From: Deltaproteobacteria bacterium
Lineage (GTDB): Bacteria > Desulfobacterota > GWC2-55-46
Assembly (NCBI GenBank): GCA_016234855.1
Contig: JACRNO010000006.1
Span: forward strand, 1 to 59,908
Direction of reading: 5' to 3'
DNA length: 59,908 nucleotides
The stretch's first letter is position 1. The number at the start of each line of letters is the position of its first letter. A program made the translations under genes and the position numbers. Below, in pieces: positions 4,235-57,410 of this stretch. Below the pieces are notes generated by a model. That model worked only from the letters and a program-made list of their open reading frames with translations, was not told the origin of the DNA and did no database searches.

Positions 4235-4295
4235 CGGCTTTTTTACTCTTGACTATGTTGGAGCGATACGTTCTTTCAAGAATGATGGGCGCGGA
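4156..4295. repeat. Exact tandem duplication, 2 x 70 bp (4156-4225 and 4226-4295)
   Basis: cggggtcatcggcttttttactcttgactatgttggagcgatacgttctttcaagaatgatgggcgcgga occurs twice back to back. Confidence 0.97.
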
Positions 4296-13200: not shown

Positions 13201-13361
13201 ACGCTCACGGGTTGCGACACCGTATTATCCGCGGCAGAGGCCGCGGATATAAACGCGAGCAATAGAGGCAGTATGTATGCTAAAAATCTCGTCTTCATAA
13301 TCCATTCCGTGAAAGCGAACCGTTTTAACGGCAAACTGCCGGGGCTTATCCGATTGAACAT
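4206..13361 (-). CDS. Giant secreted LamG / Ig-like / FN3-repeat protein, N-terminal part of the split RHS protein (likely start MKTRFLAYILPLLL at 13298)
   Basis: Signal peptide MKTRFLAYILPLLLAFISAASA; LamG domain (YYMDNDWFDASGNGYNATPYSGAAFS...LDNIVIYNRALSDAEI); many Ig-like and FN3 repeats; ends SAPIILERTYRSNIVKSKKADDP then VRAHHS* caused by the 70-bp duplication. Confidence 0.88.
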   Translation of the reverse strand: MFNRISPGSLPLKRFAFTEWIMKTRFLAYILPLLLAFISAASAADNTVSQPVSVSLPSYMQGRMDGRPVSVSLPSYMQGRMDGRPVSVSLPSYMQGRMDGRPVSVKATAAGSVYPEIVAVYYMDNDWFDASGNGYNATPYSGAAFSAPGKVGSHAASFDGVDDYARVPHNAAFGMTKNITVEYWIKAAVSQKSNFLVIDKSHGTSGITGWLMQGASSGRIDWGFGNGSDWTSVISTTADMRDNAWHHLAGTYDGSVLKLYVDGVLDNSKAETRGIAQNTNPVMIGKHYSIPGREFNGSLDNIVIYNRALSDAEILEHYINAFMDTTPPATPAVTQAVSLTTSQIITLSGTKDADSSIWINGAQATAVDALTAWQVSYTLTQQGVNQLRISGKDAAGNESLPVFVTVALDNAAPAVVSASPANNGAYNTLITSVTVNLSDAYSGVDINATLNGASVTDAAGQAVAGAWTASGADAVIFTPTSAFTEGAYTVKIYPTDGLGNRALAQISFGYDVTAPLPPVINAVLTPTNVTSQTIQGARSLDTASVAVSLSSGAAGAVSYPTSTTWRVGVSGLIDGNNTVLVYAKDAAGNRSAPASAVITVDTVPPAAPVPNSVTSPTRDNSVVLLGAKDADSYVYVNSLKLVSSFADTAWSYTGALGEGSNTFTIYAADAADNKSQTVSVTVARDTTAPKIAASTPTVNSFTNQAGTIDVVLTDASDIDLQASLAGAIVKNGAGAVVAGAWATAQGHLVFTPSAAFTDSSYNVTLYPADALGNSAAVSFGFTLDTAPPAVQSLAMNPGSPHRAETVTFTITFNEDMSTNAPLNVTIGSGWFFPTTYQITGAWTGARTWSGSYTFTGATGDGTYTVKVKDAKDKAGNALNAQDAGTFELDTAAPAAPAISRVTTPTKNPFQALTGSKEANTAIIINNVQRVAVSDLTSWSYNYPLAEGVNNISATARDAAGNGSAPVTTAITLDTTPPVFTISPYQNPSTTQVQVISGTKEPGSTVMLNNVVIIDATDAGSTWSYSVALTEGATTRLTFNVSDSLGNAVTKSIDILYDTAPPASLAAGVLSADGSGRGTEAALSWPAYAEPADLGYYRLYYATSNFNTSSGMTAVSTVNKGTKALKVAGLTQGAPYYFAIVPVDTSGNFNAAVNTAFAVPADTAAPEDVTGLTATAGYGAVNGNYAALNWTASVNSTGDLAGQILYVDSGTGYDAGTPLGSTAVSYAASGLADAKRYRYRITTMDMSGHESAGVFADAVTRLANPTGLAAAPGNAKVALTWNAVNSPYVKQYVVYRKAAAAQQTGVGAMSLVKALTGTSFTDTGVVNGTTYQYAVTVLNTSGAEMTDVLSVSARPRQDETGPVIAAVNVTQGQIITAPLTVTASAQDAESPMGSVEIYVDSVLASSQTGAGASYFWNTVDVTDGNHTVTIKAVDGLGNVTTLPIGVIVSLAPPAVPSITSHIVAGTAPQYLVDINGVAPLFTNVTIRVNGVAVGQVAASTAGTFGYSGAALTEGDNFIAVKAVHRGGESAFSADYRIIVDTGAPNSPVNLSAKPGAGGTVQFTWGPGSGETPAGYNIYTSAAPFTLRTDAGVSRINTSLITYSLKEYIPANDNRMYYALSAVDSAGNESQLSNVVSASSDRVPPSVASLSFVYTNQAGGAVDQATVAGPGSVKVSLAVTEPLIELPFVSIEPQSGSPIVLTMSRIDAAHYQGTFTVNAQTPHGPTVYKFSGKDQLGNRGSGQGAGVTIDVHGPAASITSPATLWRITSAPVQVNVSFDEGPSSAPVMEIKDASGSSAPITNLLPVTALNWSGSADVSSLSDGNAEFVLKEAKDAFGNVSSTVGSGKTIMLYRDTVAPPPVPAGLVAAPKKGGAISLTWAKVDGALSYNVYRRAEGASSASFAAASPAASAADAPPADGVYYYSVASVGLLNSVSAPSAEVSVSSDGSAPAVPAGLTLGLSGSGVNVAWSAPSAPSTETPASYNVYRSGSPITSTAGLTPVAKATLPAAVDAAPVSTRRYYSVTALDSLGNESAPSDSVEIVFPVAPVRNLVLTKIDDGMPMLTWEASEAGIQGYFVYRNGSRITASPTPVASYTDGYYSGGAARYGISEVGSTGAESPIKEVILPDISLGIKPGTALRRGLIETVPVVMTSGSDVTVSSIEIKVGASAVSVMAGPFNLIAGAGLEVQKVAAADANAGAQTAVVTTAVITPAGGVTVRVSRTTAADVLNSGAALEVYSDPLMHGAQARVRLKVNNLGSARTEFLTSEGGGPTQQVSVKLKDQDGNLLASGNLFQVTGSVVNTGSYAGARITPGTSFLTDPVTFTVPAGAPYTVFIEASIQNTYYHYGQADVVTAPGLKTTVETGISDAAYGATASVAKDVYKQGEPVVITGQAISSLTGAPAALVPVKIGLSIKGFDRFYTVNTDASGNYSYTFTPGVSEAGTFDLWASHPDVTTKFAQARFSIAAIDLTPRVLNLRMAKNTSFDLPFTVKNLGDIEMTSVAFTPEVSPGVSAAVVNPGAAALAPGETRVLTYRVTAALDAPDNGFANLSVNTAQGVGAALTTNLSLVQAQPVIAASPSYIDGGIVRGSQKIEQFTITNAGLDTLRGAVLTPPSTPWMTLTTAPSIGDLKPGESRIVGVLVSPSAAIAQAIYDDRIVITSANHVPYTYNIQVSVTSNAVGGAMFDVLDDLIQDVSGASITIQHQMLLDLMYTVKTGADGTVSLFDIPEGRYAFNITAPGHKSYSGSFSVVPGLTVVVPVAMETTLVDIQWSVVPMTIVDSYEIKISQTFATNVPTPVLVTEPAGVVLPPLEPGGVYNGEFTVTNYGLIALDDARLEFPAAFDDYDIEVLSVIPATLAAMQKVTVPYRITRRAQIAAYLDGSSGASYASRKHGGYGSLFDEVSGYGGGSCYAGFAIITAGSAVICPGSMNERRVGRSSSHTVSRASSCGGGGSASTSYAFGPAPVGGSGGGGGSVPTTIGKDQCFSPACTNRMCEKDLRHCTGSSVLLSNGTYEFSASDLKTPAPSAPIILERTYRSNIVKSKKADDPVRAHHS
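13048..13211 (-). repeat. Tandem repeat, 3 x 51 bp plus partial (17-aa unit RPVSVSLPSYMQGRMDG)
   Basis: acgctcacgggcctgccgtccatcctcccctgcatgtaagacggcag(c/a)gag repeated at 13048, 13099 and 13150; in frame. Confidence 0.95.
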
Positions 13362-13638: not shown

Positions 13639-15015
13639 TTATACGCCGGCGGGTATCTCCTTGCCGCTTTCGGTTATGTAAATCACGCTCGAACCGCCGC
13701 CCATGACCGAAGAGACCCGCACCCTCTCCACCTTCTCGCCGTTGACGTAGAACGGCGCTCCGTTCGACGCGGTAAGAACGAACGTCGTTGAAATCGAGAT
13801 TATGGACGGGTATGCCTTTGAGAGCGTCAATTGCACGGCAGCGGTAGACGCCGCATCCGTCCCGCTCAGCGTGCCCGTTGCCGTGGTAACGGCGCCGACC
13901 TCTGGAGCAACAACGGCAGTAACGGTTGTCCCGACCGGTATGTTGGCTCCGCTGATCTCAATTGAGACCGGATTTACGGTATTAAAAGGCAGCGTGACGT
14001 CAAGACTGCCATACGTCCCGGATGGAACCGCGGGCACTGCAATGCCGCCGACCTTTGTTATGGAAAGTACCGGCATATTGGGCGGTGTTACAGAGGTCGG
14101 AAGCGCAAACGAATATACCGGCGTTGTAGTTGCTGTCCTGGTCATCGTGAACGTTTCAAGCCTTACGCGGCCATCCCCGCCTTTTCCGGCGGAGCCGCTA
14201 GCATATCCGCCAACGGCGCTTATCGTGCCATTCCCTGAGATGGTATTTGCTATCAAACGAATAGCGCCGCCGCTCCCGCCGCCGCCATACATAATGTAAG
14301 AAGAAGTCCCATTACCTCCCTTTGCAAATATTTGCCCTGCGACATTAATGGTCCCTGAAGACGCGATAAGTATTGCCCCGCCGCCGCCGCCGCCCGCTGG
14401 CCCGACATAGCTTATATTGCTCCCGCCCGCGCCCCCGCCGGAGCCTCCCAGCAGAGGCAATAACGTCAGGTTCCCGTAAGTGCTGCCTCCGGCGCCCCCG
14501 GGAAAACTTGTATTATTGGTTGACCCGGCATTGCCTGCTATCCAAAAGCTCCCGCCGCCGCCGCCGCCGGCATAACCATTGGCAGTGCCGTCAGATGTCC
14601 CTGGCTCGCCTCCGCCGATCCCCTGCCCCCTTCCGCTGGCGCTGCCTAAGGCGCCGCCCCTTCCGCCTTCAAATCCGCCCGGCCCGCCCTTTCCAGGGAT
14701 GAGTTGAGTGCCTATCGAGCCGCTTACGTCTATAGTTCCCCCTATAGTCACGTCTCCGGTTGCGAGTATCGTAACCGGGGTGTTGGCCGAATTCTTGCTA
14801 AAGGTGACTATCGCGCCATATGGGATATTAACGGTAGTGTAATTAAAGACCCCGCTTTCAGGGATCTGCAGGACGATACTCGCCGTAGGCGATAACGCCC
14901 CGTCAGCGCCCGTGCTGCCGCTTGAGAAAGCTGCTTGCGCGGAAGACGGCGCGGCAAGAAGCAATATTGACGACAAAAGACCGAACGTCAGAGCGATTAT
15001 CTTTCTTCCATTCAT
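13639..15015 (-). CDS. Secreted glycine-rich surface protein (458 aa)
   Basis: Signal peptide MNGRKIIALTFGLLSSILLLAAPSSAQA; VTILATGDVTIGGTIDVSGS followed by GG-rich tracts; atypical C-terminal domain. Confidence 0.75.
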   Translation of the reverse strand: MNGRKIIALTFGLLSSILLLAAPSSAQAAFSSGSTGADGALSPTASIVLQIPESGVFNYTTVNIPYGAIVTFSKNSANTPVTILATGDVTIGGTIDVSGSIGTQLIPGKGGPGGFEGGRGGALGSASGRGQGIGGGEPGTSDGTANGYAGGGGGGSFWIAGNAGSTNNTSFPGGAGGSTYGNLTLLPLLGGSGGGAGGSNISYVGPAGGGGGGAILIASSGTINVAGQIFAKGGNGTSSYIMYGGGGSGGAIRLIANTISGNGTISAVGGYASGSAGKGGDGRVRLETFTMTRTATTTPVYSFALPTSVTPPNMPVLSITKVGGIAVPAVPSGTYGSLDVTLPFNTVNPVSIEISGANIPVGTTVTAVVAPEVGAVTTATGTLSGTDAASTAAVQLTLSKAYPSIISISTTFVLTASNGAPFYVNGEKVERVRVSSVMGGGSSVIYITESGKEIPAGV

Positions 15016-15060: not shown

Positions 15061-18000
15061 CTACTTCGCGTCCTCGAGGTACCGCATCTCCCCGAGTATG
15101 CCGAGCAGCCTGTCCATATCCAGCCTTGCTCCGCGCGCCTCAACGGATTCCATGCCGCCTATCGCCTCTATAGCGTCAAGCACGCTTGTGATATCCTTTT
15201 CCAACTTCACCTTGCCGCCGGCCGCCTTGTCTCTTATGCCCTCCATGAGCTTCACCATTGCCGCGGCATCTTCCCCGCCTTTGGCCCCTGCAAGGACGTT
15301 TAGCCTGTTGATGACCCCGTTTATCACGTCCTTCGCGCTTCCGGCGACGTTTATATCGATTGAAGCGGCCTGATAGCTCTTGACCGCGCCTTTATCCGCG
15401 TATGAAACAGACGTCGTAAGCGTATACGCGCCCGCGGCATCCGGCGTAAGCGCGAAGAAATTAACAAACTGCGTGCCGCCGGCCTTGCTAATCTCCTTAA
15501 CCCACGGATTATCCTTTATCCACGTGCCTGTGAACGTATCCACCAACCTGAAACCGGCCGGATAATTTTGCGTCACCGTGTAGTCCTGAACGCCCTGGAC
15601 GCCATTAACGTCGAGCTTTACCGGCACAAGGTCATACGGCAGATACGGCCCGCCGGCCGGCCTCGGCTTATGGATATATGCAAGCGACGATTTGACGGCG
15701 TTCTTGAACCTTTCGTCCTTGCTGAGCGACAGCCCGAGGTCAAAGGCCATGTACACGGCCTTACCCTCGCCGTAACTCTTTGCGAGCGCGCCGGGATACG
15801 CCCTGCCCTTGCCATCGCCCGGCATACTGGCGAGCAAGACGGCGCCCTGTCCCTCATCCGCCTTCACCGCGCTGCCGTAGGATTGCATGACGCCTGCGCC
15901 AGGGAAGGCTTCCGCAAATTCGACCTTATTGTCGGTTGTCGAAAGCGCTTCAAGCTTGTCTATGCCGAAGAGGCCGAAGAGGGACGGCTCGTTCAACAAG
16001 GATGCCGCCACGCCTCCTCCGGCGTTAACCCTTTCTTTCAGTTCACGCGCTGACTGTAAGCCCAACTGCTCCCTGCCGCCGAGGATCATATAATCGGTAT
16101 AGTAAATATTCCTCAGCTCCAGTTCGAACTCCGGCGCGCCCTTGACTATATAGTAGGCCGCGCCCGCGTCCGTCAGCGCCTTTTCAACCGAGGCCGTGTC
16201 AACGCATTTGTCCGCGGGGACCGAGCCGCGGCCATGCGTCTCGTCCTGCGCATCGTCCTGAGCGCATTCGTTCAGCCATACGAGAACCCTGACAAAATCC
16301 GGGACGCTGTTTGTTACCGTGACGCCGCCTTCCAACACGTCGAACGAGGACGATGCCAGGGTTTTATCGCCGACGCGCAGCGCCGCGCCGTAAGTCCCTG
16401 CGACGATATCCGCCGTGGTGGAAAGGTTTTGCGCCGCGCTCACGCCTGCGGCAACGCTTACAACCGACCTGAGCGTCTTCACGACGGTCTGTTTCGCGTC
16501 AGTGATGGTTATCGTAAGGGCTGCGCCGTCTATGCCGCGCTCCCCTGAATTCCTGAGATTGACGTTGAACTTCACCGCGCCTCCGCGCAGCACGCCCGAC
16601 GGAGAGACGTCCATCTCTCCATTCAGTCCTTCAAAGGACGCCGCCTTAGCCGTCCCGCCCGCCGGCTGCCCGGCGCCGGCCGCCGCGGTTTGCCCGGAGG
16701 CATCGGACTTCCCGCCTGCCGCCTCGGCCTCTGCGGCGGAATGCTCACTCTCCGACACGCCGTCGTCTTCTTTCTCTTTGCCGGCGTCCTGCGCCATGAA
16801 GTACTTAGCCTCCATGATCCTCAGGTATTCATCAAGCAGCGCCCGTATTGAATTCGTGTCAAATTCGAGTTTTTCGACGTTGAATATCACCTGAACCACG
16901 CCGCGGACGACCTTATTCAAGTCGTCCCTCGTGACAGACGGCCTGGACTCGGCCTCGGCAAACCCGGCAAGTATCCCGCCTATCTCCTCAGCCGAACCCG
17001 GGTGCAGCGCAATCTGTTCTTGCAGCAGGGTCTTCACCTTTTCGGCAAGGCTTGCCGAATCATCCGCGACGGTTATCGTATACGTATAACTGCCGATCGG
17101 CCTTGCCTGACCGCCCGCCATCAGATACGCATCAGTCGTCTTTGTGTAATTCCGCGCATGGTCGCCGGGTCTCACGAAGTACCTATACGACCCGCTCTGA
17201 CCGTTCTCCAAGTGCACCGCAAACTCAAGACTGCCCATATCGAGATCGAATAACGGCGTATACGCAAGCCCGTCGCTCAGAGTATCTTTCAACGTCACGT
17301 CGGCTTCAACGCCGTTGAGCGCGAGCACCGTCTCAAGCAGCATGACAGAGGCTGCGCCGCTGTCGGGGATTTCAGGCGCCATATAAAACGCGGCGTTCCT
17401 TAAAAGGTCAGCATATTGTCCGGTGCCTGATGCAAGCGCGGACCCGATGATATCGAACGCCATAAAGAGCGCCTTGCCTCTTCCGAACCCGTTCAGTATC
17501 GCCCCTGGCGCGGCCTCGGTCGCATTCCCGTGCTCTCGCTGAAGCGTCAGAGTCCCTATTGCCGTGCCGCCGTCAACCTCGACTATCGAGATATCTCCGT
17601 AGACCGCAACGGTTTCACCCCCGGATATCGCGCTGCTTGCAAGGGTCAACGTTCCGGACGGCTTATCTTCGCCTTGATTAGCCTTGTTTTCAACTTGGGC
17701 GCTCTTATCTTCGCCGTGACTACCCTTGCCTTTAATCCCGAATACGTCGGCAAGCGCCGGGTGCTCGCCGTCCTTCCATCCGGAGACTATGATACCCATC
17801 CCTCTCCTTACACCTTCCCTCAATTCCCGCAATATGATTGCGTCCTCAGGCACATCCTCCCCTAATATCGCGGCTATGTTATACACCCCGGAACGGAATG
17901 CCTTTACGAACTCATTCTTGTCCGCCACCATCGTGTAATAAGCGTCAGTCCCCGCAAACGCATCCCTGAGGAATGCGCCTGCGGAAGCGGCATCATACTC

Positions 18001-20466
18001 GGTATGCTTATTGCTTTCGCTCCAGACGAGCACCCTTGGCGCATTGAGCGTATCCGTCTTGACGTCGAATCCCACAAAAATCATCTCAGCGGCCTTTACG
18101 GCTTCCTTGTTGCCTACGTTGTCTATGCCATAATACTGTAGCGTATGTCTGCCGTACGCAAGGGTTGAAAGATTAAACGCCCCGCCATACGCGACCCAGG
18201 TCGATGAGTCGTCGAACCTGTAATAAATAGCATTTATCCCTGAGAGATTGTCCGTGGCCGAAAGCGTGACGCTCGTTCTCGCTGAAACCATATCCCCATG
18301 CACGCCGTCGCTCACCGTCATCCGCGTCAACGGCGCGGTATCGTCAACCGTCACGCTCAGGGTCTTGTCAGCCTCGACGTTGCCCACGTTGTCCATGCTG
18401 CGGTAATCTATCGTGTGAGCGCCCTCACCAGTCACCTTGAACGGCCCGGCGTATGCAACCCACGCGCCGCCGTCTATACGGTACTCGGTCGCCTTAACGC
18501 CCGATAGGCCGTCCGCGGCGCTCAGCGTAAAGAGAGCATCCGCCCCAACATACGTCTTACCGTCAGCCGCCGTAAATTTCGCGCCCCCGATATCCATCCG
18601 CGTCAGCGGCGCGGTATCGTCAACCGTCACGCTCAAGGTCTTGTCAGCCTCGACGTTGCCCACGTTGTCCGCTGCGCGGTAATCTATCGTGTGAGCGCCC
18701 TCGCCAGTCACCTTGAACGGCCCGGCGTATGCAACCCACGCGCCGCCGTCTATACGGTACTCCTGAAGCCTTATCCCTGAAGTAACCACTCCTGAGTCAG
18801 CAACGCTCAGAGTGAAGGACGTTGTCCCCGACACAAAGAACCCTGCGCCTGTAATCGGCACGGCCGGGGTTCCCACAGTCAGATTGCTTGTGGGCGCGCT
18901 TTTGTCTATATAGAACGCATACGTGTCGGTTGCGCTGTTGCCGGCCTTATCCGCTGCGGATATTGTAAGCTCGTACGCGCCTTCAGCAGTCACCGCCGCG
19001 CCTGCATACGCGGTTCCGTTCAACAAAGACGCGGTCGAACTTAAATTCGCGTCAGTCACGTTTATAACGGGCAAAACGTCATTATTGTAATAGTTCCCTT
19101 TTGTCACACCGGCAACGTTTATAGAAGGCGGAGTTTTGTCTATAATAAAATTGACGGTGTTACGGGCGGTATTACCGGCGGCATCGGTCGCCGTGACAGC
19201 CAGCGTATAACTGCCATCGGCGGTTATGGCTCCGCCCAGGTACGGCAGCCCGTTAAGGGCCATCGTTATCGTAACACCTCCCGCATCAGTCGCCGTAATC
19301 GAAGGCACGATATCAAGGAGCGTGAGCAAGCCGTCCAGAAGCCCGCCGTTATTTATTACGGGAGGCACGTCGTCCAGCGGCGTGACGGATAGGCTTGCAC
19401 CCTGGCTTACGTTGCCGAAGACATCATATGCCGCCACCATCAGCTGCGCGGGCACGCCGTTTTCCAAACCGCTTATCTCAACTCCGGCTGCCGTCGGATC
19501 GGCTAAATCCTTTAAAACAGCGGCGCCGGAGTAAATCCTGTAGCCGGCCGCGTCAGCGGACAGTGACGGCTCCCATGAAAGCGCCACGGCGCCCTTATCG
19601 TCACCGGACTTATCGACGCCGGCAACACCGGCGACATCAAGAGGAGGCGTATTTACGGCCATGTCGACCATGCTGCCGCAAATCACCTGCTGACCCGCTG
19701 CCGAGGACTGCACCAGCACCTTCCCCAGCTGATAAACGCCGTTCCAATTATCTACTTCGTAGACGCTGCCAACCGCCAGTTTCGCCCTCTGAAGCGCGGC
19801 CGCGGCGTCCTGATACGTAAGGCCTCTCAACTCCGGCACTTTCGCATAACATTTCAAGTCAACCGCTGCGCCGATATTGCTGTCAAGCGCGTATGCAACG
19901 CCATCTTCCATTAACATCGCATCGGTAAGCGTTATATCTATCTTATCGGCCGCGACCAGGCTTCCAACCTTTACCATGAACCTGGCAATCGAGCCGCCGC
20001 CGGAAGACAAGGCGGCCCCGTTGGTATGCGCGAACGTATACAACCCCGTCCCGCCTGAAAGAGTTTCGTTATCCATAACCAGCACGCCGTTCGCCCCTTT
20101 CCCGGCCCAAAAAAAGTCTCCGAGACCCGAACGGGCCTCGGTAAAAGCCCCGACAAGCAGCGGCGTCGCCACCGATACGTCATCGGGTTTGGCCTGTGAG
20201 AGGTCGGTCAGGCCGCCGACGTTAGACCCAGCCGCCCCGACGTTCAGCCTGAACTGAAATGCCCCCAGCCCGGTCTGCGGCACGTTATCGGCAACTATGT
20301 CTACGTAAAATAAATCGCCCGGCGCGACCTTGGACGTTGACGGCACAGCCCTTATCCCGGCGGCATATGAAACGCCGGCGAGGGCAAGCAGCGCCAATAT
20401 GAGCGCCGCAGCCGCGCTTATCGCGCCGCATCTATGCCTTATATGTCTTAATGGATTTCCGCGCAT
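15061..20466 (-). CDS. Large secreted protein with cohesin-like, PASTA, FN3 and Ig-like domains (1801 aa)
   Basis: Hydrophobic N-terminus; cohesin-like VAPGDLFYVDIVADNVPQTGLGAFQFRLNV; PASTA-like VPELRGLTYQDAAAALQRAKLAVGSVYEV; repeated YRIDGGAWVAYAGPFKVTGEGAHTIDYR modules. Confidence 0.75.
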   Translation of the reverse strand: MRGNPLRHIRHRCGAISAAAALILALLALAGVSYAAGIRAVPSTSKVAPGDLFYVDIVADNVPQTGLGAFQFRLNVGAAGSNVGGLTDLSQAKPDDVSVATPLLVGAFTEARSGLGDFFWAGKGANGVLVMDNETLSGGTGLYTFAHTNGAALSSGGGSIARFMVKVGSLVAADKIDITLTDAMLMEDGVAYALDSNIGAAVDLKCYAKVPELRGLTYQDAAAALQRAKLAVGSVYEVDNWNGVYQLGKVLVQSSAAGQQVICGSMVDMAVNTPPLDVAGVAGVDKSGDDKGAVALSWEPSLSADAAGYRIYSGAAVLKDLADPTAAGVEISGLENGVPAQLMVAAYDVFGNVSQGASLSVTPLDDVPPVINNGGLLDGLLTLLDIVPSITATDAGGVTITMALNGLPYLGGAITADGSYTLAVTATDAAGNTARNTVNFIIDKTPPSINVAGVTKGNYYNNDVLPVINVTDANLSSTASLLNGTAYAGAAVTAEGAYELTISAADKAGNSATDTYAFYIDKSAPTSNLTVGTPAVPITGAGFFVSGTTSFTLSVADSGVVTSGIRLQEYRIDGGAWVAYAGPFKVTGEGAHTIDYRAADNVGNVEADKTLSVTVDDTAPLTRMDIGGAKFTAADGKTYVGADALFTLSAADGLSGVKATEYRIDGGAWVAYAGPFKVTGEGAHTIDYRSMDNVGNVEADKTLSVTVDDTAPLTRMTVSDGVHGDMVSARTSVTLSATDNLSGINAIYYRFDDSSTWVAYGGAFNLSTLAYGRHTLQYYGIDNVGNKEAVKAAEMIFVGFDVKTDTLNAPRVLVWSESNKHTEYDAASAGAFLRDAFAGTDAYYTMVADKNEFVKAFRSGVYNIAAILGEDVPEDAIILRELREGVRRGMGIIVSGWKDGEHPALADVFGIKGKGSHGEDKSAQVENKANQGEDKPSGTLTLASSAISGGETVAVYGDISIVEVDGGTAIGTLTLQREHGNATEAAPGAILNGFGRGKALFMAFDIIGSALASGTGQYADLLRNAAFYMAPEIPDSGAASVMLLETVLALNGVEADVTLKDTLSDGLAYTPLFDLDMGSLEFAVHLENGQSGSYRYFVRPGDHARNYTKTTDAYLMAGGQARPIGSYTYTITVADDSASLAEKVKTLLQEQIALHPGSAEEIGGILAGFAEAESRPSVTRDDLNKVVRGVVQVIFNVEKLEFDTNSIRALLDEYLRIMEAKYFMAQDAGKEKEDDGVSESEHSAAEAEAAGGKSDASGQTAAAGAGQPAGGTAKAASFEGLNGEMDVSPSGVLRGGAVKFNVNLRNSGERGIDGAALTITITDAKQTVVKTLRSVVSVAAGVSAAQNLSTTADIVAGTYGAALRVGDKTLASSSFDVLEGGVTVTNSVPDFVRVLVWLNECAQDDAQDETHGRGSVPADKCVDTASVEKALTDAGAAYYIVKGAPEFELELRNIYYTDYMILGGREQLGLQSARELKERVNAGGGVAASLLNEPSLFGLFGIDKLEALSTTDNKVEFAEAFPGAGVMQSYGSAVKADEGQGAVLLASMPGDGKGRAYPGALAKSYGEGKAVYMAFDLGLSLSKDERFKNAVKSSLAYIHKPRPAGGPYLPYDLVPVKLDVNGVQGVQDYTVTQNYPAGFRLVDTFTGTWIKDNPWVKEISKAGGTQFVNFFALTPDAAGAYTLTTSVSYADKGAVKSYQAASIDINVAGSAKDVINGVINRLNVLAGAKGGEDAAAMVKLMEGIRDKAAGGKVKLEKDITSVLDAIEAIGGMESVEARGARLDMDRLLGILGEMRYLEDAK
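18320..18762 (-). repeat. Near-identical internal duplication (~167 bp copies at 18320-18486 and 18596-18762, period 276 bp)
   Basis: Both copies encode TEYRIDGGAWVAYAGPFKVTGEGAHTIDYR..DNVGNVEADKTLSVTVDDTAPLTRM with only a few nucleotide differences. Confidence 0.85.
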
Positions 20467-20497: not shown

Positions 20498-21493
20498 TTA
20501 ATGTATCCCTGTCCTGCCGTATTCGTTGGCAAATCTTGAAAACTCCCTCGCATCCACCTTGCCGCCGGCGTCGTCCACAAAGTTGTAATCAGGGTTATAG
20601 CTTCCATCCGCGGGCATCGTCCTGTATTGCCCCTTAAAAAGTATGAAATCGTCGTCATTGACGCTGCCGTCAAGGTTTATATCAGCGAAGAACCCGGTTA
20701 CCGGTTCCGAGGCTTTCAGCGCGGTATCTTTGACGGCTACTTTCCGGTAATGGAGCAACGTTGAAAGAAGCGTTCCTCTGTATGCCCTCAAAACCGCCTT
20801 CTCACCTCCAATCGCTTCCGCGCTCAAGCCGTCGTTACCAAAGATGTTATTAAGGTCTATGATCCCTTCCGGCGCATTGCTTCCGCTGCGCGCAAACGCG
20901 CTTATCGGATATCTCGACGCGGGTGACTCAAACACAACGATGTCGCCGAGCCCGGGTTTTATGTCTGCGTCCTGCGGCTGTAGATATATTCTGAAAGAGA
21001 CTATGTCATTAAAAAAGCCCGTCAGGCTGCCGTTTGCGTATTTGTATGGGATTACCGCGCTCGCGGTAATAACCTCGTAGACGGCGGAATAGCCGACGTT
21101 TGACGCGTTGGCAGGGTCTGCGGTTACTGCCCGCGCGAAGTATGAGGCGGAAGGTTTAAGCCCGCTCACCATTACCTTCATCACCCCTTTTTTCTTTGCC
21201 GCCGAAACGGTTTCATGGTCGGCGCCGGGCATGGGAGTTATGCGGACATTATCCGTAATCCTATTGGTCATGGCCGCGTCCGTGTATACATCCACCGATG
21301 GAGTTGCTTCGACATCAGTCATCCAGATAACGGAAAATGACGACGTGGTCACGTCCGTCAGCCGCACGGCGGACACCTCCGGCACGGCGTACGCATCATC
21401 AGGGGCAAAAGCCGCACCCGCCGCCAGCAAACCGGCCGTCAGAAAAAGACTTAAAAGACGCGGCCATGCTCTGAGCGCTGAAGTATTTTTCAT
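20498..21493 (-). CDS. Secreted FN3-like protein with C-terminal dockerin-like module (331 aa)
   Basis: Signal peptide; C-terminus FFADINLDGSVNDDDFILFKGQYR...YNFVDDAGGKVDAREFSRFANEYGR resembles dockerin duplicated Ca-binding loops. Confidence 0.7.
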   Translation of the reverse strand: MKNTSALRAWPRLLSLFLTAGLLAAGAAFAPDDAYAVPEVSAVRLTDVTTSSFSVIWMTDVEATPSVDVYTDAAMTNRITDNVRITPMPGADHETVSAAKKKGVMKVMVSGLKPSASYFARAVTADPANASNVGYSAVYEVITASAVIPYKYANGSLTGFFNDIVSFRIYLQPQDADIKPGLGDIVVFESPASRYPISAFARSGSNAPEGIIDLNNIFGNDGLSAEAIGGEKAVLRAYRGTLLSTLLHYRKVAVKDTALKASEPVTGFFADINLDGSVNDDDFILFKGQYRTMPADGSYNPDYNFVDDAGGKVDAREFSRFANEYGRTGIH

Positions 21494-22317
21494 CTCTGCT
21501 TACCGCCCTTTCCCGGGTTGGGACACGATGGGCACTCGCCCACCGTCTTTTTACCCGGCTTCGCATCCATCGCCGCCCACGCCTCATAACCGCCGATGAG
21601 ATACCTGACATCCAGACCTTTTCTTGCGACAGCGTCCGTAATCTGAGCCGCGTTGTCCGGCGCTGAGAATACCAATATGACACTGCTGGCTTTATCGAGT
21701 CTTTTGGCAAGAGTCTTGTGCTCGGGCTTCTGCACTGTCTCTTTGAATTTTACGACCCGTTCCGGCAGGTCCCTGCCTTTTATCCAAACCGCGCCTTTTA
21801 CGGTATTTTTTTTGAAATCTTTCTCGCTCCGCAGGTCATAAATCCTGAGCGCCGCCCCGTTATCGGCGGCCCATTTGAGTTCCGCCGCGGTGACGCCGCG
21901 CGACGACGCGTTAAAACCGGTGATTGGATATCCTTCTCTCTCCCATGCGGCAATGCCGCCTTCCATGATAAAAATTCTCTTAATCCCTTTTGCATTAAGT
22001 TTGGAGACGGCCTCCTTTGCCATTCTGAGGCCGAGAGTGTCATCAACTATAACAAACGTCTTATTTACGGGCAGCCGCTTTACGGCAATCTCTTCCGTGG
22101 TGATGTTGACTGCGCCTTCAATATGCCCATTATTGAACTTCACGGAATCCCTGACGTCCACAAGCCACAGGGCCGACCCCTCCTTCAACATGGCGCCCAC
22201 CTTTTCCGGCATTATCCAGCCGGGTTCGGACGAAAAGGCTGCGTTGACAAGCATCAGCAGCGCGCCTAATGCCGTCAGCGCAATAAACAACGGCCTTTTT
22301 CCGTTCAAGGCTTCCAT
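21490..22317 (-). CDS. Exported tandem rhodanese-domain protein (275 aa)
   Basis: Two rhodanese modules: WLVDVRDSVKFNNGHIEGAVNI...GGIAAWEREGYPI and RIYDLRSEKDFKKNTVKGAVWI...IGGYEAWAAM; N-terminal hydrophobic segment. Confidence 0.8.
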   Translation of the reverse strand: MEALNGKRPLFIALTALGALLMLVNAAFSSEPGWIMPEKVGAMLKEGSALWLVDVRDSVKFNNGHIEGAVNITTEEIAVKRLPVNKTFVIVDDTLGLRMAKEAVSKLNAKGIKRIFIMEGGIAAWEREGYPITGFNASSRGVTAAELKWAADNGAALRIYDLRSEKDFKKNTVKGAVWIKGRDLPERVVKFKETVQKPEHKTLAKRLDKASSVILVFSAPDNAAQITDAVARKGLDVRYLIGGYEAWAAMDAKPGKKTVGECPSCPNPGKGGKQR

Positions 22318-25300
22318 CCGTCAACCCTCTTTTTCATCGTTATTATGAGTCCGTCCCCGGCAGTTATGGGGAAATTGACCCCGACCAATTCTTTTACGCC
22401 TGCATTATCCCTTACGACGGCTGTCTGCCACGCCCCTGTCGAAATATCGAACCTCCTTACGCCCTGAATATTATCGACACCGACCGAGTTCACGAGGCTC
22501 TGCGCCCTATAGTCCGCCGGCGCTTTCAAAATGCCTATCTGATTTTCACCCTGCAGGAGCGTATATAGGACCGTATCACCGGCGTCAGCCACTTTTAACG
22601 TCCGTGCCTGTCTGGCGTATATCACAAGCCCCATGCCCTTCGATATGCTGAAGTTGCCGCCCGCGTTTGAGGCATCCATGTACGTGCCATGCAGGCTGTC
22701 GTAGGACAAGACCTTCTCGATGTCACCGCCGGAGGCCAACAGGTCGGATGCATTTGGATATGCCGCCGCAAGCGCCGCTCCGGCCGCCACAAGATTAAAG
22801 CCCGGCGCCAATTCGACTTCAAGCGGGGCTGCTTCGATTTTGAACGCCGCCTTGTATATCTGATACACGCCGTCTCTATTGTCCTGCCACAAAACGTGAC
22901 TGGAGGATATCGCAGGCTCTTCCTGCCTGGCCGGATCGGCGCTGAGTTTGCCTCCTACGCCGGTTTGCAGGTCATAGAACGAAAGGTCAGGGTCCGCCGG
23001 CCCCTTCTCGTAATCAACATACACGACGGTATCATTAAAAATCGCGGCATCCGACTCGTCATAAGACCCGTAGGTGACGCGCGTCTCACCCGTTGCAGGG
23101 GTGTTTGCATAAATATCCTTCTGGCTGCCGCCGTTTCTCTGATCCGTCCATACCAATGCCTGTCCGGATACCCCGGGTTTGATCTGATTGTTTATATCCA
23201 CAGTCACGCGCGTCTCGGTCCCTGACACGACCTCGTACTTGAATATTTCGCCAAGACCGTTTCTATAATCCTCCCAAACTATCGCATTGCCGGATATCGC
23301 AGGATTTATCTGATCCCTTTCATGCGAGGTAATCCGAACTTTTTCGCCGGTCGTAAGATTCCCCGCATATATGTCCCAATTCGCGCTCTGGTCGCTCTGC
23401 CAAACCACCCAATTACCGGATATTGCAGGATGAACCTGATTCCCCGGGCCGGTTGCGATTGAGAACTCCCTGTTCGTCGGAAGATCATATCCGTAAATAT
23501 CCCAATCCCCGCTCCTGTTGTCCTGCCATACCACGATATTGCCGTCGATATCAGGCATTGTTTGTTCAAAGCCGTTTGTAACTACCGCCCTGGAAACGCC
23601 GCCGCTCAAATCCTTCACATAAACGTCCCAATTGCCGCCTCTATTGTCCTGCCATACTACTGTTGCGCCCGAAACCTTCGGATACATCTGAGCGCCCGAA
23701 GGATTTGGGTCCACCGGCGCTCCGGTAAACCATTCCAACGCCTCTACCGTTGCAGTTGCCGTCGCCGTATGCGATACGGCGCCGGTATTGACCGCATCGT
23801 TCAAACCGTCGCTTACGCGCAGTTCAGCGGTATATGTTCCGGTAGCGGCGAGTTTGCCGGAGTTGTCCCTGCCGTCCCACTCAGCCGTAAAAATCTCCCC
23901 GCTCAGGGCGGTGCCTGTCAGTGTCCTCACAACCTTTGGAGCCGCACCGGAGTCCTTAATGTTTATTGTCACAGGCAACTCCGTCACGTTATCCGATATC
24001 ACGGCCGTAAACGTCACGCTGTGCGCGGCGGCAACCCCCTTTGGCGCGTACGGCACGAACCCGGCAGGAGAAACGCCGAACGATTGTATCTGTGGCGGCG
24101 CATCGTCAACAACGATAACAAGCGTTTTAGCCGCCTCCGTATTACCCGACCTGTCAACGCTGTAATACTCCATCGCATACTGCTTCGGCGAGGTTAACCT
24201 GAACGGGTAAAAAGGTTCGAAACCGGCATCCACTCCAACGACTTTGTCGAACATCTGGTCAACGCCGCTGCCCCCGTCATTGTCTGTCGAGGTAAGGATT
24301 ACCCTCGTAAGCGGCGTGATGTAGACCCTATCCGCGGCGGAAACCGCCGGGCCATCAAAAACGACACGCGACGACGGCGGCGCGAGGTCCGCGTCCGGCT
24401 GCGTAAATTGAAGCGTGTATGCGCCTGTAACGGATGAATCGCCCCTGTAATCAACGAACTGAAGCGTAAATTGAGTCTGATAGTCTCTGTCAAGTCCTCT
24501 TTCGACCCAAAAGTTGTTCGAATCAAGGTGTACGCCGTCGCCCCTTACCACATCAAGCAGCTTCAGCATCCCCTGCGATGGGTCGGGCAGCTTCACGTAT
24601 ACCCAGCCGGTATTGACGGTAGTGACGGTCATGGACACGGCTGAAGACTGCGGGGTCGGCCTTGACGGCGTTGACACGGGCGTCTCCACATGCACGGGCG
24701 CGCGCGCGTCGTCCCTGTTCTTCGAGCCATTCGGTATTTCAGATTCATAAATTGCATCCGGCAGATGTTCGGCATCCTTGTCGGTATCAGCGAGATAATC
24801 CAGTTTGTTGTCCCTGCCGGGGAGATTCACCTTTATGCGCCGCGCCAGATAATACGCGTTCGTCTCTTTTATCAGCGACGTCAGTTCCCCTCCTAATTCG
24901 GACGAATGCGAGAATGACACATCGAACTTCTCGAATCTGCCGCTTAAGGTGGATATCATCTCCCAATAAGCCGTGCCCGCCTTTTTGCTGCCGAGGTCTC
25001 CAAACTGAACCGTAAGGGCAGGACTGACCGAACTATCATTTACCTGGGAACCCAGAAGCTTAAAATCGACAAGCAGCCCCTGGTCGTTGCTGGTTATCTT
25101 TGGCTGCGCCGAATCTATCTTGAAGTTCAAAGCGGCGCCGTAGCCGTCGTTTAAAACGCGCACGGCCAGCGGGAACGGCACCGGCGCCTCGACCTGCGGC
25201 GTAAACGGATTGTCCCCCAACACATTGAACGGCATGAAGTAATCGAGTATAATCTGCGGCATCGGTTTTACGGTTATCTTGTCGGGATTAACCGGCACCA

Positions 25301-25820
25301 CTTCCTGCTTGCCTGCGATTGCGTATGTAATCGTGGCGCCCACCCAGTACGGCAACCCGATTGCAGTCTGCCCTCCGGCGCCTGGAGACGGGATGATCAG
25401 CCAGTGCGCCTCCGCTGCAGTGCCGGCCTTTACGATACCGGTGCCGTCCACCCCGCTTATATTCTGCATCGCTGAGGTCTTTATAAAAAACACATCGTTA
25501 CGAATGTTGCCGTCCGCGTCTTTTATCGAAACGTCGACCCTGAGTTCCGCAAGGTCTTTATCGGGCATATTATTCGTAAGAACCAGCTTCGCATCGAAGG
25601 CCACCCGCTCAACGGTAGCTTCCTGCAGTATCTCAAGACTAACCTTTGAACAGGCCGTCTCGGCCCGCGAAACAGGCGCAACGGCAAAAAAAACAACCTG
25701 CAGAAGAAACATCGCCGCGGCGATGGCAATCGCGTAAAACCGCCGCCGACACGCGCCCGCGGCCGCATCCGTGACTGAATTTTCTCCGCGCTCTACAATA
25801 CCCGTATCAATCATTAGCAA
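22305..25820 (-). CDS. Secreted protein with FlgD/Ig-like and TolB-type beta-propeller repeats (1171 aa)
   Basis: Repeated VVWQDNRxGxWDIYxYDL blades; FlgD-like EWDGRDNSGKLAATGTYTAELRV; N-terminal TM/signal; overlaps 3' neighbour start. Confidence 0.78.
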   Translation of the reverse strand: MLMIDTGIVERGENSVTDAAAGACRRRFYAIAIAAAMFLLQVVFFAVAPVSRAETACSKVSLEILQEATVERVAFDAKLVLTNNMPDKDLAELRVDVSIKDADGNIRNDVFFIKTSAMQNISGVDGTGIVKAGTAAEAHWLIIPSPGAGGQTAIGLPYWVGATITYAIAGKQEVVPVNPDKITVKPMPQIILDYFMPFNVLGDNPFTPQVEAPVPFPLAVRVLNDGYGAALNFKIDSAQPKITSNDQGLLVDFKLLGSQVNDSSVSPALTVQFGDLGSKKAGTAYWEMISTLSGRFEKFDVSFSHSSELGGELTSLIKETNAYYLARRIKVNLPGRDNKLDYLADTDKDAEHLPDAIYESEIPNGSKNRDDARAPVHVETPVSTPSRPTPQSSAVSMTVTTVNTGWVYVKLPDPSQGMLKLLDVVRGDGVHLDSNNFWVERGLDRDYQTQFTLQFVDYRGDSSVTGAYTLQFTQPDADLAPPSSRVVFDGPAVSAADRVYITPLTRVILTSTDNDGGSGVDQMFDKVVGVDAGFEPFYPFRLTSPKQYAMEYYSVDRSGNTEAAKTLVIVVDDAPPQIQSFGVSPAGFVPYAPKGVAAAHSVTFTAVISDNVTELPVTINIKDSGAAPKVVRTLTGTALSGEIFTAEWDGRDNSGKLAATGTYTAELRVSDGLNDAVNTGAVSHTATATATVEALEWFTGAPVDPNPSGAQMYPKVSGATVVWQDNRGGNWDVYVKDLSGGVSRAVVTNGFEQTMPDIDGNIVVWQDNRSGDWDIYGYDLPTNREFSIATGPGNQVHPAISGNWVVWQSDQSANWDIYAGNLTTGEKVRITSHERDQINPAISGNAIVWEDYRNGLGEIFKYEVVSGTETRVTVDINNQIKPGVSGQALVWTDQRNGGSQKDIYANTPATGETRVTYGSYDESDAAIFNDTVVYVDYEKGPADPDLSFYDLQTGVGGKLSADPARQEEPAISSSHVLWQDNRDGVYQIYKAAFKIEAAPLEVELAPGFNLVAAGAALAAAYPNASDLLASGGDIEKVLSYDSLHGTYMDASNAGGNFSISKGMGLVIYARQARTLKVADAGDTVLYTLLQGENQIGILKAPADYRAQSLVNSVGVDNIQGVRRFDISTGAWQTAVVRDNAGVKELVGVNFPITAGDGLIITMKKRVDGWKP

Positions 25821-27240
25821 GCTTCCTCAGGACCTCGACCCCGACCCCAGTTACCGCCGGATGGTCGGCGCCGTGCGTGTTGACCATGAACGCAAAAGCG
25901 GTTAAACGGTCTTTTTTATCCCTGACATACCCGGCAACCGCGTATGCGTCCTCGAGTTGTCCGGTCTTTACCTTGATATCGCGCGATACAAATCCGATAT
26001 CGCTCAGCGTCCCTTCACCCGGAGACGAAAGGCTGTTGTAAAAATCCTTATACCATGGCGCGTGGACAACGCTTTGCAAAAACCGCACTACACCCGCAGC
26101 GCTGACCATATTGTCATTTGATATCCCGGAGCCGTCCGAGATTCTTAAAGCCGCCGCATCCAGTCCAAACCCGCTCAAAAACTCCTCGACGTATCTGACG
26201 CTCTTGGCATACGTGGCCGGCGCCCCATAAGCGGCCGCCCCGAGAGAGAACAACAGATTGTCGGCTAACAGGTTTACGCTTTTTTTATTCAGCGCGTCCG
26301 CAAGAACACCTGCCGGCGGGGACGGCAAAGCTGCCATCGTTCGCGAACCTTCCGGAGCGCGGCCCTTGCGCGCCGTGCCGGCAACCTTTATTCCGGCTTC
26401 CGTCAACGCCGAATAAAACGCGCCGGCGGCATAGAGGGCGGGGTCTTTCAGTGAAAACCTTTTATGCAGCGGCGCAGAGCTTGCCGGAATATTCCCTGAG
26501 ACCTCGTATGCAAGGTCATCTATCTGCCTTATTGCTATTCCTGTCTTGTCAAGCGATGATGTCCTGGCCGTTAAGGCTATTCTGACGAAACCATTGGGAG
26601 GGGATATCTCTATGAGAGGAGGCATGCCGGCTTCCGCCGGAGCTACTTTTATGGAAACCGTATGAAGGTCGATCCCAAGCGCCCCCGGAAAAGAGAAGGC
26701 CGGCGAGTCAGTATCCAAAGCCGGTCTGTTTATCCCGCGGACGTCAAAATACGAATCGTCGGCCGCGACGTCACCCCGGACTTCCTTGATACCGGCCTCC
26801 GAAAGCCTCTTTGCCGCGGTCTTCAAGTCCGCGACGGAGAGCAGCGCATTGCCTTTTCCTATTAAAAACAAGCTGCCGTTCAAGACCCCGTCGGATATTT
26901 TGCCGTCGACAGCCGCATATGTCGTAAAATCAGGCCTCACCACGGCATCAAAAAGAGCGCCTGCGGTAAACAACTTCACCAGCGAACCGGGCTTTAACGG
27001 CTCATCACCGCCGATATCAATTACCGCTTCACCGCTTTCGCAATCCACGGCAACTAACGACCACCTTGCCTGCGCTGGCAGTCTTTGCATAATGACGGCT
27101 TCAAAATCTGAATTGGCTTTGGGAAGAGAGCCCCGGCCGGAGGCATCGGATGGATATGCGTTATTGCATGGGATTAAAGAAGTGACCGCAGCCGCCAACA
27201 TCATGATGAGTCCTCTCAGGATGAACGTTGTTTTTCTCAC
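25807..27240 (-). CDS. dacB: D-alanyl-D-alanine carboxypeptidase/endopeptidase, PBP4 (S13) family
   Basis: SxxK (KPGSLVKLF), SxN-type (RISDGSGISNDNMVS) and KTG (KVKTGQLEDAYAVAGY) motifs in S13 order. Confidence 0.88.
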   Translation of the reverse strand: MRKTTFILRGLIMMLAAAVTSLIPCNNAYPSDASGRGSLPKANSDFEAVIMQRLPAQARWSLVAVDCESGEAVIDIGGDEPLKPGSLVKLFTAGALFDAVVRPDFTTYAAVDGKISDGVLNGSLFLIGKGNALLSVADLKTAAKRLSEAGIKEVRGDVAADDSYFDVRGINRPALDTDSPAFSFPGALGIDLHTVSIKVAPAEAGMPPLIEISPPNGFVRIALTARTSSLDKTGIAIRQIDDLAYEVSGNIPASSAPLHKRFSLKDPALYAAGAFYSALTEAGIKVAGTARKGRAPEGSRTMAALPSPPAGVLADALNKKSVNLLADNLLFSLGAAAYGAPATYAKSVRYVEEFLSGFGLDAAALRISDGSGISNDNMVSAAGVVRFLQSVVHAPWYKDFYNSLSSPGEGTLSDIGFVSRDIKVKTGQLEDAYAVAGYVRDKKDRLTAFAFMVNTHGADHPAVTGVGVEVLRKLAND

Positions 27241-27256
27241 GCGCTGTTAGTTGGAC

Positions 27257-27298
27257 AAAAAAAGACCTGCAGCCGCATCAAAATGCGGCTGCAGGTCT
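27257..27298 (-). terminator. Intrinsic terminator between riboswitch and dacB
   Basis: Minus strand AGACCTGCAGCCGCA-TTTTGA-TGCGGCTGCAGGTCT-TTTTTT; perfect 15-bp stem and U tract, just upstream of the dacB start (27240). Confidence 0.92.
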
Positions 27299-27321
27299 AA
27301 AATTAATAAAAGATATCGGCC

Positions 27322-27435
27322 GGATGCCTTTCCAGTTGCAAACCATTTCGACAACCCCTTTGTCCCTAATCATCAGGGCTCGGTGGCTTTGCCCCCCCGG
27401 ATTCATACGGGGTAGCCTTTTCGATAGTTGCTATG
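27322..27435 (-). promoter_or_regulatory. Candidate GEMM-I class riboswitch aptamer (c-di-GMP or cGAMP)
   Basis: Minus strand ...CGAAAAGGCTACCCCGTATGAATCCGGGGGGGCAAAGCCACCGAGCCCTGATGATTAGGGACAAAGGGGTTGTCGAAATGG...: GEMM-like GCAAAGCC-ACCGaGCC core, second hairpin and closing GGGGUUGUCGAAAUGG; P1-like pairing of GCAACUAU with AUGGUUUGC. Confidence 0.72.
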
Positions 27436-27592
27436 TAAAATATATCTGAATAAACCGATTGTAAAATATTTTTACGGCCTGGGAATATCACCGTCCCAAG
27501 AATTTGTCAAACGTTTTTTTTAAGCCGGCAATTAGACATTGCCTCAAATAAAAAAAACCGGGTATCCGACTTTTTAAATATAAGGATTGTGC

Positions 27593-57100: not shown

Positions 57101-57410
57101 GTATGGTATTTGCCTTTAATTATACTATTAATTATGTCCACTTCTCCTGTGCATCTTATAAAACAAAACCGCTCGAAGCAAACCTTTTCGCTCTCGTTCC
57201 CAAGCTGAAGCTTGGGAGCGAGAGGTTGCCGGAAGCGGCACAGGCACTTTTCTGTGCCGTCAGGAGTTTCCTCCTGACGGCGTAAACCTCATAGCCGGCA
57301 GGAGGAAACTCCTGCCGACACTACAATCCTTCCCAAGACCTTCTATTGACTACCCCGCGCCAATAGTGTTAAATTTCATATCATGAACGTTGCTAAAAGG
57401 GGGCGCCCAA

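What the first reader, a model, noticed from the sequence alone, without database searches (positions are those of the whole stretch)
27250..27440. GEMM-I-like (c-di-GMP/cGAMP) riboswitch with terminator in front of a PBP4-plus-surface-protein operon
Seen: the minus strand between gspD and dacB carries GCAAAGCC-ACCGAGCC...GGGACAAAGGGGUUGUCGAAAUGG with an upstream GGCUACCCCG hairpin, then a perfect 15-bp GC-rich hairpin with U tract, then the dacB start. Established: GEMM-I riboswitches bind c-di-GMP (some Geobacter-type variants bind 3',3'-cGAMP) and often control secreted or surface functions through a terminator. Inference: second-messenger state gates transcription of about 27 kb of PBP4, cohesin/dockerin-like, Gly-rich and RHS surface genes separately from the T2SS genes upstream.
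Basis: partly seen in the sequence, partly recalled or inferred. Interest (0 to 1): 0.82.

Follow-up and report, generated by a model that had tools for sequence, protein, structure and literature searches.

The report
Divergent GEMM-I riboswitch before PBP4 operon
In front of a cell-wall-enzyme and surface-protein operon lies an RNA switch descended from the known family that senses cyclic dinucleotide signals, but it has lost several normally fixed bases and carries a changed ligand-contact base that it shares with a small, poorly described subgroup, so what it senses is an open and testable question.

Summary
Minus strand 27431-27338 folds as the three-helix GEMM-I aptamer. A 16-bp terminator with a U tract (27298-27256) follows, then dacB/PBP4 (27240-25807). 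Rfam finds it only below threshold (RF01051 31.1 bits, cut-off 35; RF03168 31.4, cut-off 65.9). A model I built from 19 other GEMM-I RNAs, with the window left out, finds it at 51.1 bits (E about 1e-15), and it is the genome's only hit. Homology is therefore secure.

It is not a canonical c-di-GMP or Geobacter-type cGAMP aptamer. It has G20 and A47 but U92 (normally C). The otherwise universal C44-G83 pair is G/A, and the GNRA loop is an 8-nt loop. Its seven nearest relatives, mostly from Geobacterales, are all G20/U92 RNAs, often before large secreted proteins. U92 would pair with adenine, so 3',3'-cGAMP is a plausible ligand; the genome has three GGDEF enzymes with the Ser typical of cGAMP synthases. 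c-di-GMP remains possible.

The leader folds as an OFF-type attenuator: the 3' strand of P1 can pair with P1 or with the terminator's 5' arm (the latter p=0.07). A riboswitch of this lineage is likely; ligand and direction are inferred.

The parts
27552..27575 (-). terminator-like hairpin just after gspD, separating the T2SS genes from the leader
   Evidence: pattern scan, 10 pairs then T run
27437..27465 (-). promoter-like site TTTACA-17-TATTTT that would start the RNA a few bases before P1
   Evidence: consensus match 9 of 12 only
27338..27431 (-). GEMM-I-lineage aptamer including extended P1 (GCAACUAUCGA with UCGAAAUGGUUUGC)
   Evidence: held-out model 51.1 bits, E 1.1e-15, match 27339-27435; minimum-energy fold
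27344..27351 (-). 3' strand of P1, UCGAAAUG, shared between P1 and the proposed antiterminator; its first base is U92
   Evidence: position read from the alignment; alternative fold
27278..27285 (-). CAUUUUGA in the terminator loop, complementary to UCGAAAUG
   Evidence: duplex of the wider region p 0.07
27256..27298 (-). 16-bp intrinsic terminator hairpin and U tract
25807..27240 (-). dacB, PBP4-type D-Ala-D-Ala carboxypeptidase (GTG start)
   Evidence: Pfam PF02113 E 5.6e-67; TIGR00666 above cut-off
22305..25820 (-). surface protein with beta-propeller repeats and FlgD-Ig domain, overlaps dacB end
21490..22317 (-). rhodanese-domain protein, overlapping start
20498..21493 (-). protein of unknown family, overlapping start
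15061..20466 (-). large surface protein, Ig-like, PASTA and OmpL47 domains
13639..15015 (-). protein of unknown family
4206..13361 (-). 3051-residue LamG and Ig-like surface protein, after a 277-bp gap
392..4234 (-). RHS-repeat protein

Best explanation
It is a transcription-attenuating riboswitch that descends from the GEMM-I (c-di-GMP-I) lineage and belongs with a minor G20/A47/U92 subgroup. When a cyclic dinucleotide is bound, the aptamer closes P1 (GCAACUAUCGA with UCGAAAUGGUUUGC), the terminator 5' arm stays free, the 16-bp terminator forms, and dacB and the surface genes are not transcribed. Without ligand, the 3' strand of P1 and the linker can pair with the terminator 5' arm and loop during transcription and let RNA polymerase pass: an OFF switch with the strand topology of C. 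difficile Cd1. Shown by computation: lineage, fold, U92, terminator, alternative pairing. Inferred: ligand binding, ligand identity (3',3'-cGAMP or c-di-GMP), OFF direction, extent of the operon.
For: Held-out covariance model E 1.1e-15 in the window and 4.2e-14 in the genome. The fold of the leader reproduces P1, P2 and P3. The seven nearest relatives over 49 core positions are all G20/U92 GEMM-I RNAs, several with a terminator close downstream. Alternative pairing is best at 158-161 nt and is replaced by P1 plus terminator when the 3' arm is made, as described for Cd1 (PMC9262584). Eleven GGDEF genes, so the genome can make cyclic dinucleotides.
Against: Below both Rfam cut-offs. C44-G83, called universal among GEMM-I RNAs (PMC4744006), is G/A here; GNRA loop, A23 and C92 are changed. 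The antiterminator duplex in the window is only p 0.07, and four of eight U92 RNAs tested show no significant complementarity. No orthologous leader exists in relatives to test conservation.
Confidence: 0.63

Rival explanations
1. The specific ligand is 3',3'-cGAMP: U92 pairs with the adenine and G20 with the guanine, the reverse assignment of the A20/C92 (GEMM-Ib) cGAMP riboswitches.
For: U92 with G20 in 15 RNAs, no convincing A20/U92 among about 140. The own genome has three GGDEF proteins with Ser at the base-recognition position and GGDE[F/Y], two of which also lack the cross-dimer Arg, the marks of Hypr cGAMP synthases (PMC6456294). Ser-type enzymes also in G441 and G442; Geobacterales U92 genomes carry many A20/C92 RNAs.
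Against: The discovery pattern required G20, so the missing A20/U92 combination is partly built in. No Ser-type GGDEF was recognised among those read in the two alphaproteobacterial U92 genomes. Some U92 RNAs precede a PilZ gene and a flagellin gene, typical c-di-GMP targets.
Confidence: 0.3
2. The ligand is still c-di-GMP, held through a U92-G wobble with lower affinity, tuned to high c-di-GMP levels.
For: Eight of eleven GGDEF genes in the genome are not Ser-type. PilZ and flagellin neighbours of U92 RNAs. C92U Vc2 has been crystallised (3MUR; PMC10671752; PMC9049102).
Against: Modelling reports weaker c-di-GMP binding for the G20 and C92 mutants of Vc2 (PMC9049102). A stable group that keeps U92 is not explained by drift alone.
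Confidence: 0.3
3. A decayed GEMM-I aptamer that no longer binds ligand; the leader now works as an ordinary constitutive terminator or attenuator in front of dacB.
For: Loss of C44-G83, GNRA loop, A23 and C92 together; sub-threshold Rfam scores; only copy in the genome; a 16-bp terminator strong enough to act alone.
Against: All three helices, extended P1, G20, A47 and the P3 base pairs are intact, and sequence outside the changed sites stays close to living U92 RNAs.
Confidence: 0.28
4. Chance resemblance; not related to GEMM-I at all.
For: Rfam scores below cut-offs.
Against: E 1.1e-15 with a model that did not contain it; E 3e-4 with RF01051 in the whole genome, only hit.
Confidence: 0.02

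Closest known systems
G20/U92 GEMM-I RNAs of Geobacterales and others
   Same: G20, A47, U92, CGAAAxGGC and GGGGUUGUCGAAGUGG ends; most have a terminator downstream; several stand before large secreted proteins
   Different: They keep C44-G83 and mostly a GNRA loop, and they pass Rfam cut-offs
c-di-GMP-I riboswitch (GEMM-I, Rfam RF01051; Vc2, Cd1)
   Same: Three-helix fold, G20, A47, P3 base; predicted strand exchange like the Cd1 OFF switch
   Different: U92 for C92, G44/A83 for C44-G83, 8-nt loop for GNRA, 31.1 bits against a cut-off of 35
GEMM-Ib 3',3'-cGAMP riboswitch (Geobacter, Gs1761 and pilM type)
   Same: Same fold family; possible same ligand
   Different: GEMM-Ib has A20 and C92; here G20 and U92
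c-di-GMP-I-UAU (Rfam RF03168)
   Same: U92 and A47 as in its consensus; best Rfam match by a hair (31.4 bits)
   Different: Consensus has U at position 20, here G; score far under the cut-off of 65.9

Membership tests
c-di-GMP-I riboswitch (RF01051) | score at or above the curated cut-off (35 bits) | tested here: not met
   31.1 bits
c-di-GMP-I riboswitch (RF01051) | homology to GEMM-I by an independent model | tested here: met
   51.1 bits, E 1.1e-15, window not in the model
c-di-GMP-I riboswitch (RF01051) | P1, P2, P3 three-way fold | tested here: met
   minimum-energy fold
c-di-GMP-I riboswitch (RF01051) | ligand contacts G20 and A47 | tested here: met
   alignment
c-di-GMP-I riboswitch (RF01051) | ligand contact C92 | tested here: not met
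   U in the window
c-di-GMP-I riboswitch (RF01051) | interhelical C44-G83 pair | tested here: not met
   G and A in the window; C and G in other U92 RNAs
c-di-GMP-I riboswitch (RF01051) | GNRA loop on P2 docking into P3 | tested here: not met
   8-nt loop UAUGAAUC
c-di-GMP-I riboswitch (RF01051) | binds c-di-GMP | not testable with these tools
   needs in-line probing or ITC
GEMM-Ib cGAMP riboswitch | A20 with C92 | tested here: not met
   G20 with U92
c-di-GMP-I-UAU (RF03168) | score at or above cut-off (65.9) and U20 | tested here: not met
   31.4 bits; G at position 20
G20/U92 GEMM-I subgroup (defined here) | G20, A47, U92, and nearest neighbours within the group | tested here: met
Cd1-type OFF attenuator | 3' strand of P1 pairs with the terminator 5' arm as antiterminator | tested here: inconclusive
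   best predicted fold at 158-161 nt but duplex p 0.07

The most novel reading that the evidence does not exclude
G20/U92 GEMM-I RNAs are a third specificity group that reads 3',3'-cGAMP the opposite way round from the A20/C92 (GEMM-Ib) riboswitches, so cGAMP sensing evolved at least twice in one RNA fold; the window's copy uses it, with a rebuilt tertiary contact in place of C44-G83 and the GNRA loop, to control a PBP4 and surface-protein operon.
Probability: 0.27. Interest if true: 0.75.

Novelty: new variant of a known kind. Interest (0 to 1): 0.52.

Why it matters
Changes at positions 20 and 92 decide which cyclic dinucleotide a GEMM-I RNA reads. A natural G20/U92 group in several bacterial lineages, with one member that has also lost the supposedly universal C44-G83 pair, is a ready test of how such specificity evolves and whether cGAMP sensing arose twice in one fold. 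It would also link a peptidoglycan enzyme (PBP4) and giant surface proteins to second-messenger control.

Tried and rejected
DNA search of the leader in 59 genomes (own and relatives): outside the window only short chance matches. dacB in named genomes: no relative found; among the relatives only G046 has it (42% identity), at a contig end, so its leader cannot be read. The relaxed phylum pattern meant to count A20/U92 matched the P2 loop instead of position 20, so it was used only to find one more U92 RNA (G123). A nominal A20/U92 case (L081) is a truncated match whose 3' half does not fit and was set aside. Loop-loop pairing AAUC/GAUU between the P2 and P3 loops could replace the GNRA dock, but a four-base match between such loops is expected in roughly 8% of cases by simple count, so it is only a suggestion. 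Cohesin/dockerin content: no Pfam or NCBIfam hit. Downstream of gspD in G003, G006 and G034 no such leader was seen.

Full report
WHAT IS THERE. On the minus strand between gspD (stop 27593) and dacB (start 27240) the sequence holds, in order: a terminator-like hairpin right after gspD (27575-27552), a promoter-like site (27465-27437), an aptamer-like segment (27431-27338), a linker, a 16-bp perfect terminator with a U tract (27298-27256), and dacB. dacB is a PBP4-type enzyme (Pfam Peptidase_S13; TIGR00666 above its cut-off). Seven more genes follow in the same direction down to 392. The first four genes overlap end to start, the next gaps are 31 and 45 bp, then comes one gap of 277 bp. No strong minus-strand terminator was found in the gaps scanned. 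The products carry beta-propeller, FlgD-Ig, OmpL47, Ig-like, PASTA, LamG and RHS domains. No cohesin or dockerin was found.

IS IT GEMM-I. Rfam names it only below threshold: RF01051 31.1 bits (cut-off 35, E 3e-4 in the genome, only hit) and RF03168 31.4 bits (cut-off 65.9). Its relatives are rich in clear GEMM-I RNAs: 25 of 59 genomes have hits above cut-off. I aligned 19 GEMM-I RNAs without the window (11 with U92, 8 with C92), fixed the GEMM-I structure on them (95.5% of cells paired, 36 double changes against 11.7 in shuffles), built a model and searched the window: 51.1 bits, E 1.1e-15, next hit 15.1 bits. In the whole genome E was 4.2e-14, again the only hit. E-values of this model are rough, but the margin is large. 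I regard homology as settled.

HOW IT DIFFERS. Vc2 numbering was set by the G21-C46 and C22-G45 pairs. Position 20 is G, 47 is A, 92 is U. Positions 44 and 83 are G and A, where other GEMM-I RNAs have C and G; that pair is called universally conserved (PMC4744006; also PMC3764141). The P2 loop is UAUGAAUC instead of GNRA. So several defining features of canonical c-di-GMP-I aptamers were tested and not met, and the A20 of GEMM-Ib cGAMP aptamers is absent too. I therefore do not file it as a c-di-GMP-I or GEMM-Ib riboswitch, but as a divergent variant of that lineage.

THE U92 SUBGROUP. A pattern with U92 over the GTDB species genomes found nine stretches. Eight look like GEMM-I RNAs: Citrifermentans bremense, Geobacter argillaceus, Geotalea toluenoxydans, a Geobacteraceae MAG, a Nitrospirae MAG, an unclassified Proteobacteria MAG and two Alphaproteobacteria MAGs. 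One is a chance match in Stenotrophomonas coding DNA. I then took the RF01051 hits of those genomes and of the window's class and tabulated positions 20 and 92: A20/C92 83, G20/C92 42, G20/U92 14 (the window included), no convincing A20/U92. One more G20/U92 RNA came from G123. Caution: the discovery patterns required G20 for most of these; the window, L115, L127, L129, L132 and G123 were not selected by their own base at position 20. Over 49 core positions the seven nearest relatives of the window element are all G20/U92 RNAs; position 92 itself is only one of the 49. Among the fourteen other G20/U92 RNAs in the terminator scan seven have a terminator within 130 nt, against three of about 80 A20/C92 RNAs. 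Their neighbours include large secreted proteins with transglutaminase, TIG or Ig-like domains, but also one PilZ gene and one flagellin gene. In Rfam these RNAs fall under RF01051, RF03168 or RF03167, so the group is not outside the known family; what is not described in what I could read is G20/U92 as a set.

HOW IT MAY WORK. With the transcript ending in the terminator loop (158-161 nt from 27435) the best predicted fold pairs UCGAAAUGG and the following linker with the terminator 5' arm and loop (-42.8 kcal/mol), against -40.1 for the P1 state. Once the terminator 3' arm is made, P1 plus terminator is best (-70.5). This is the strand exchange described for C. difficile Cd1, an OFF switch (PMC9262584). 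The duplex is better than shuffles at p = 0.07 in the window, and at p = 0.016, 0.023 and 0.007 in three Geobacterales U92 RNAs, but not significant in four others. The mechanism is plausible and partly shared, not proven. The three Geobacterales RNAs are related, so their p-values are not independent.

LIGAND. U92 would pair with adenine and G20 with guanine, which suggests 3',3'-cGAMP. The genome has 11 GGDEF genes. Three (L060, L064, L065) have Ser at the base-recognition position with GGDE[F/Y]; L060 and L065 have also lost the cross-dimer Arg. These are the marks of cGAMP-making Hypr enzymes in PMC6456294. Ser-type enzymes were also seen in G441 and G442 but were not recognised among the GGDEF genes read in the alphaproteobacterial U92 genomes G447 and G448. 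c-di-GMP through a U-G wobble therefore stays about equally likely. From memory, C92U Vc2 was crystallised with linear G-A dinucleotides (3UD3, 3UD4); those entries are listed as C92U mutants in PMC10671752, but their ligands were not checked here.

ORIGIN. The dacB gene was found in only one of the 58 relatives searched (G046, 42% identity), and the leader is absent after gspD in G003, G006 and G034. Together with the fact that its nearest aptamers are in Geobacterales rather than in its own class, this hints that leader and operon came by gene transfer. This was not tested further. Because no orthologous leader was found, conservation of the altered bases cannot be checked, and a single MAG contig is the only source.

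VERDICT. A real, divergent GEMM-I-lineage riboswitch leader, likely an OFF attenuator of a PBP4 and surface-protein operon; ligand open; functional decay not excluded.

Noticed in passing
L104-L107, L099, L101-L103, L115, L127, L129, L132, L174, L240: A scattered set of G20/U92 GEMM-I RNAs, often before large secreted proteins, that deserves its own ligand test whatever the window's element does.
   Followed up: partly
L060, L064, L065 (G000 contigs C53, C71, C50): Three GGDEF proteins in the window's genome with Ser in place of the base-recognition Asp plus GGDE[F/Y], candidate cGAMP synthases.
   Followed up: partly
L006, L011-L013, L016, L017, L019, L020, L023-L025: Family-wide GEMM-I RNAs of about 125-135 nt with a long P3 (CTTTGCTCAGRGCAAACC ... 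GAGCCGCCAAA), G20 or A20 at position 20, before secreted proteins that look alike; position 20 seems to flip between close relatives.
   Followed up: no
L110, L118, L126, L134 (G443:C18:76666-77711): Four GEMM-I RNAs (G20/C92) in tandem within about 1 kb in the Citrifermentans bremense genome.
   Followed up: no
G047:C149 and C204; G045:C31; G046:C57: Pairs or triples of GEMM-I RNAs close together in several order-level relatives.
   Followed up: no
window 57252-57323: Long near-perfect inverted repeat (GGAGUUUCCUCC ... GGAGGAAACUCC) that scores against an unrelated microRNA model below its cut-off; probably a terminator or a repeat.
   Followed up: no
G003:C16 and C24; G034:C142 and C56: Two close homologs of the window's gspD in each of these genomes (55-63% identity), suggesting duplicated T2SS loci; a GEMM-I RNA lies about 7 kb beyond one of them (G034:C56).
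   Followed up: partly
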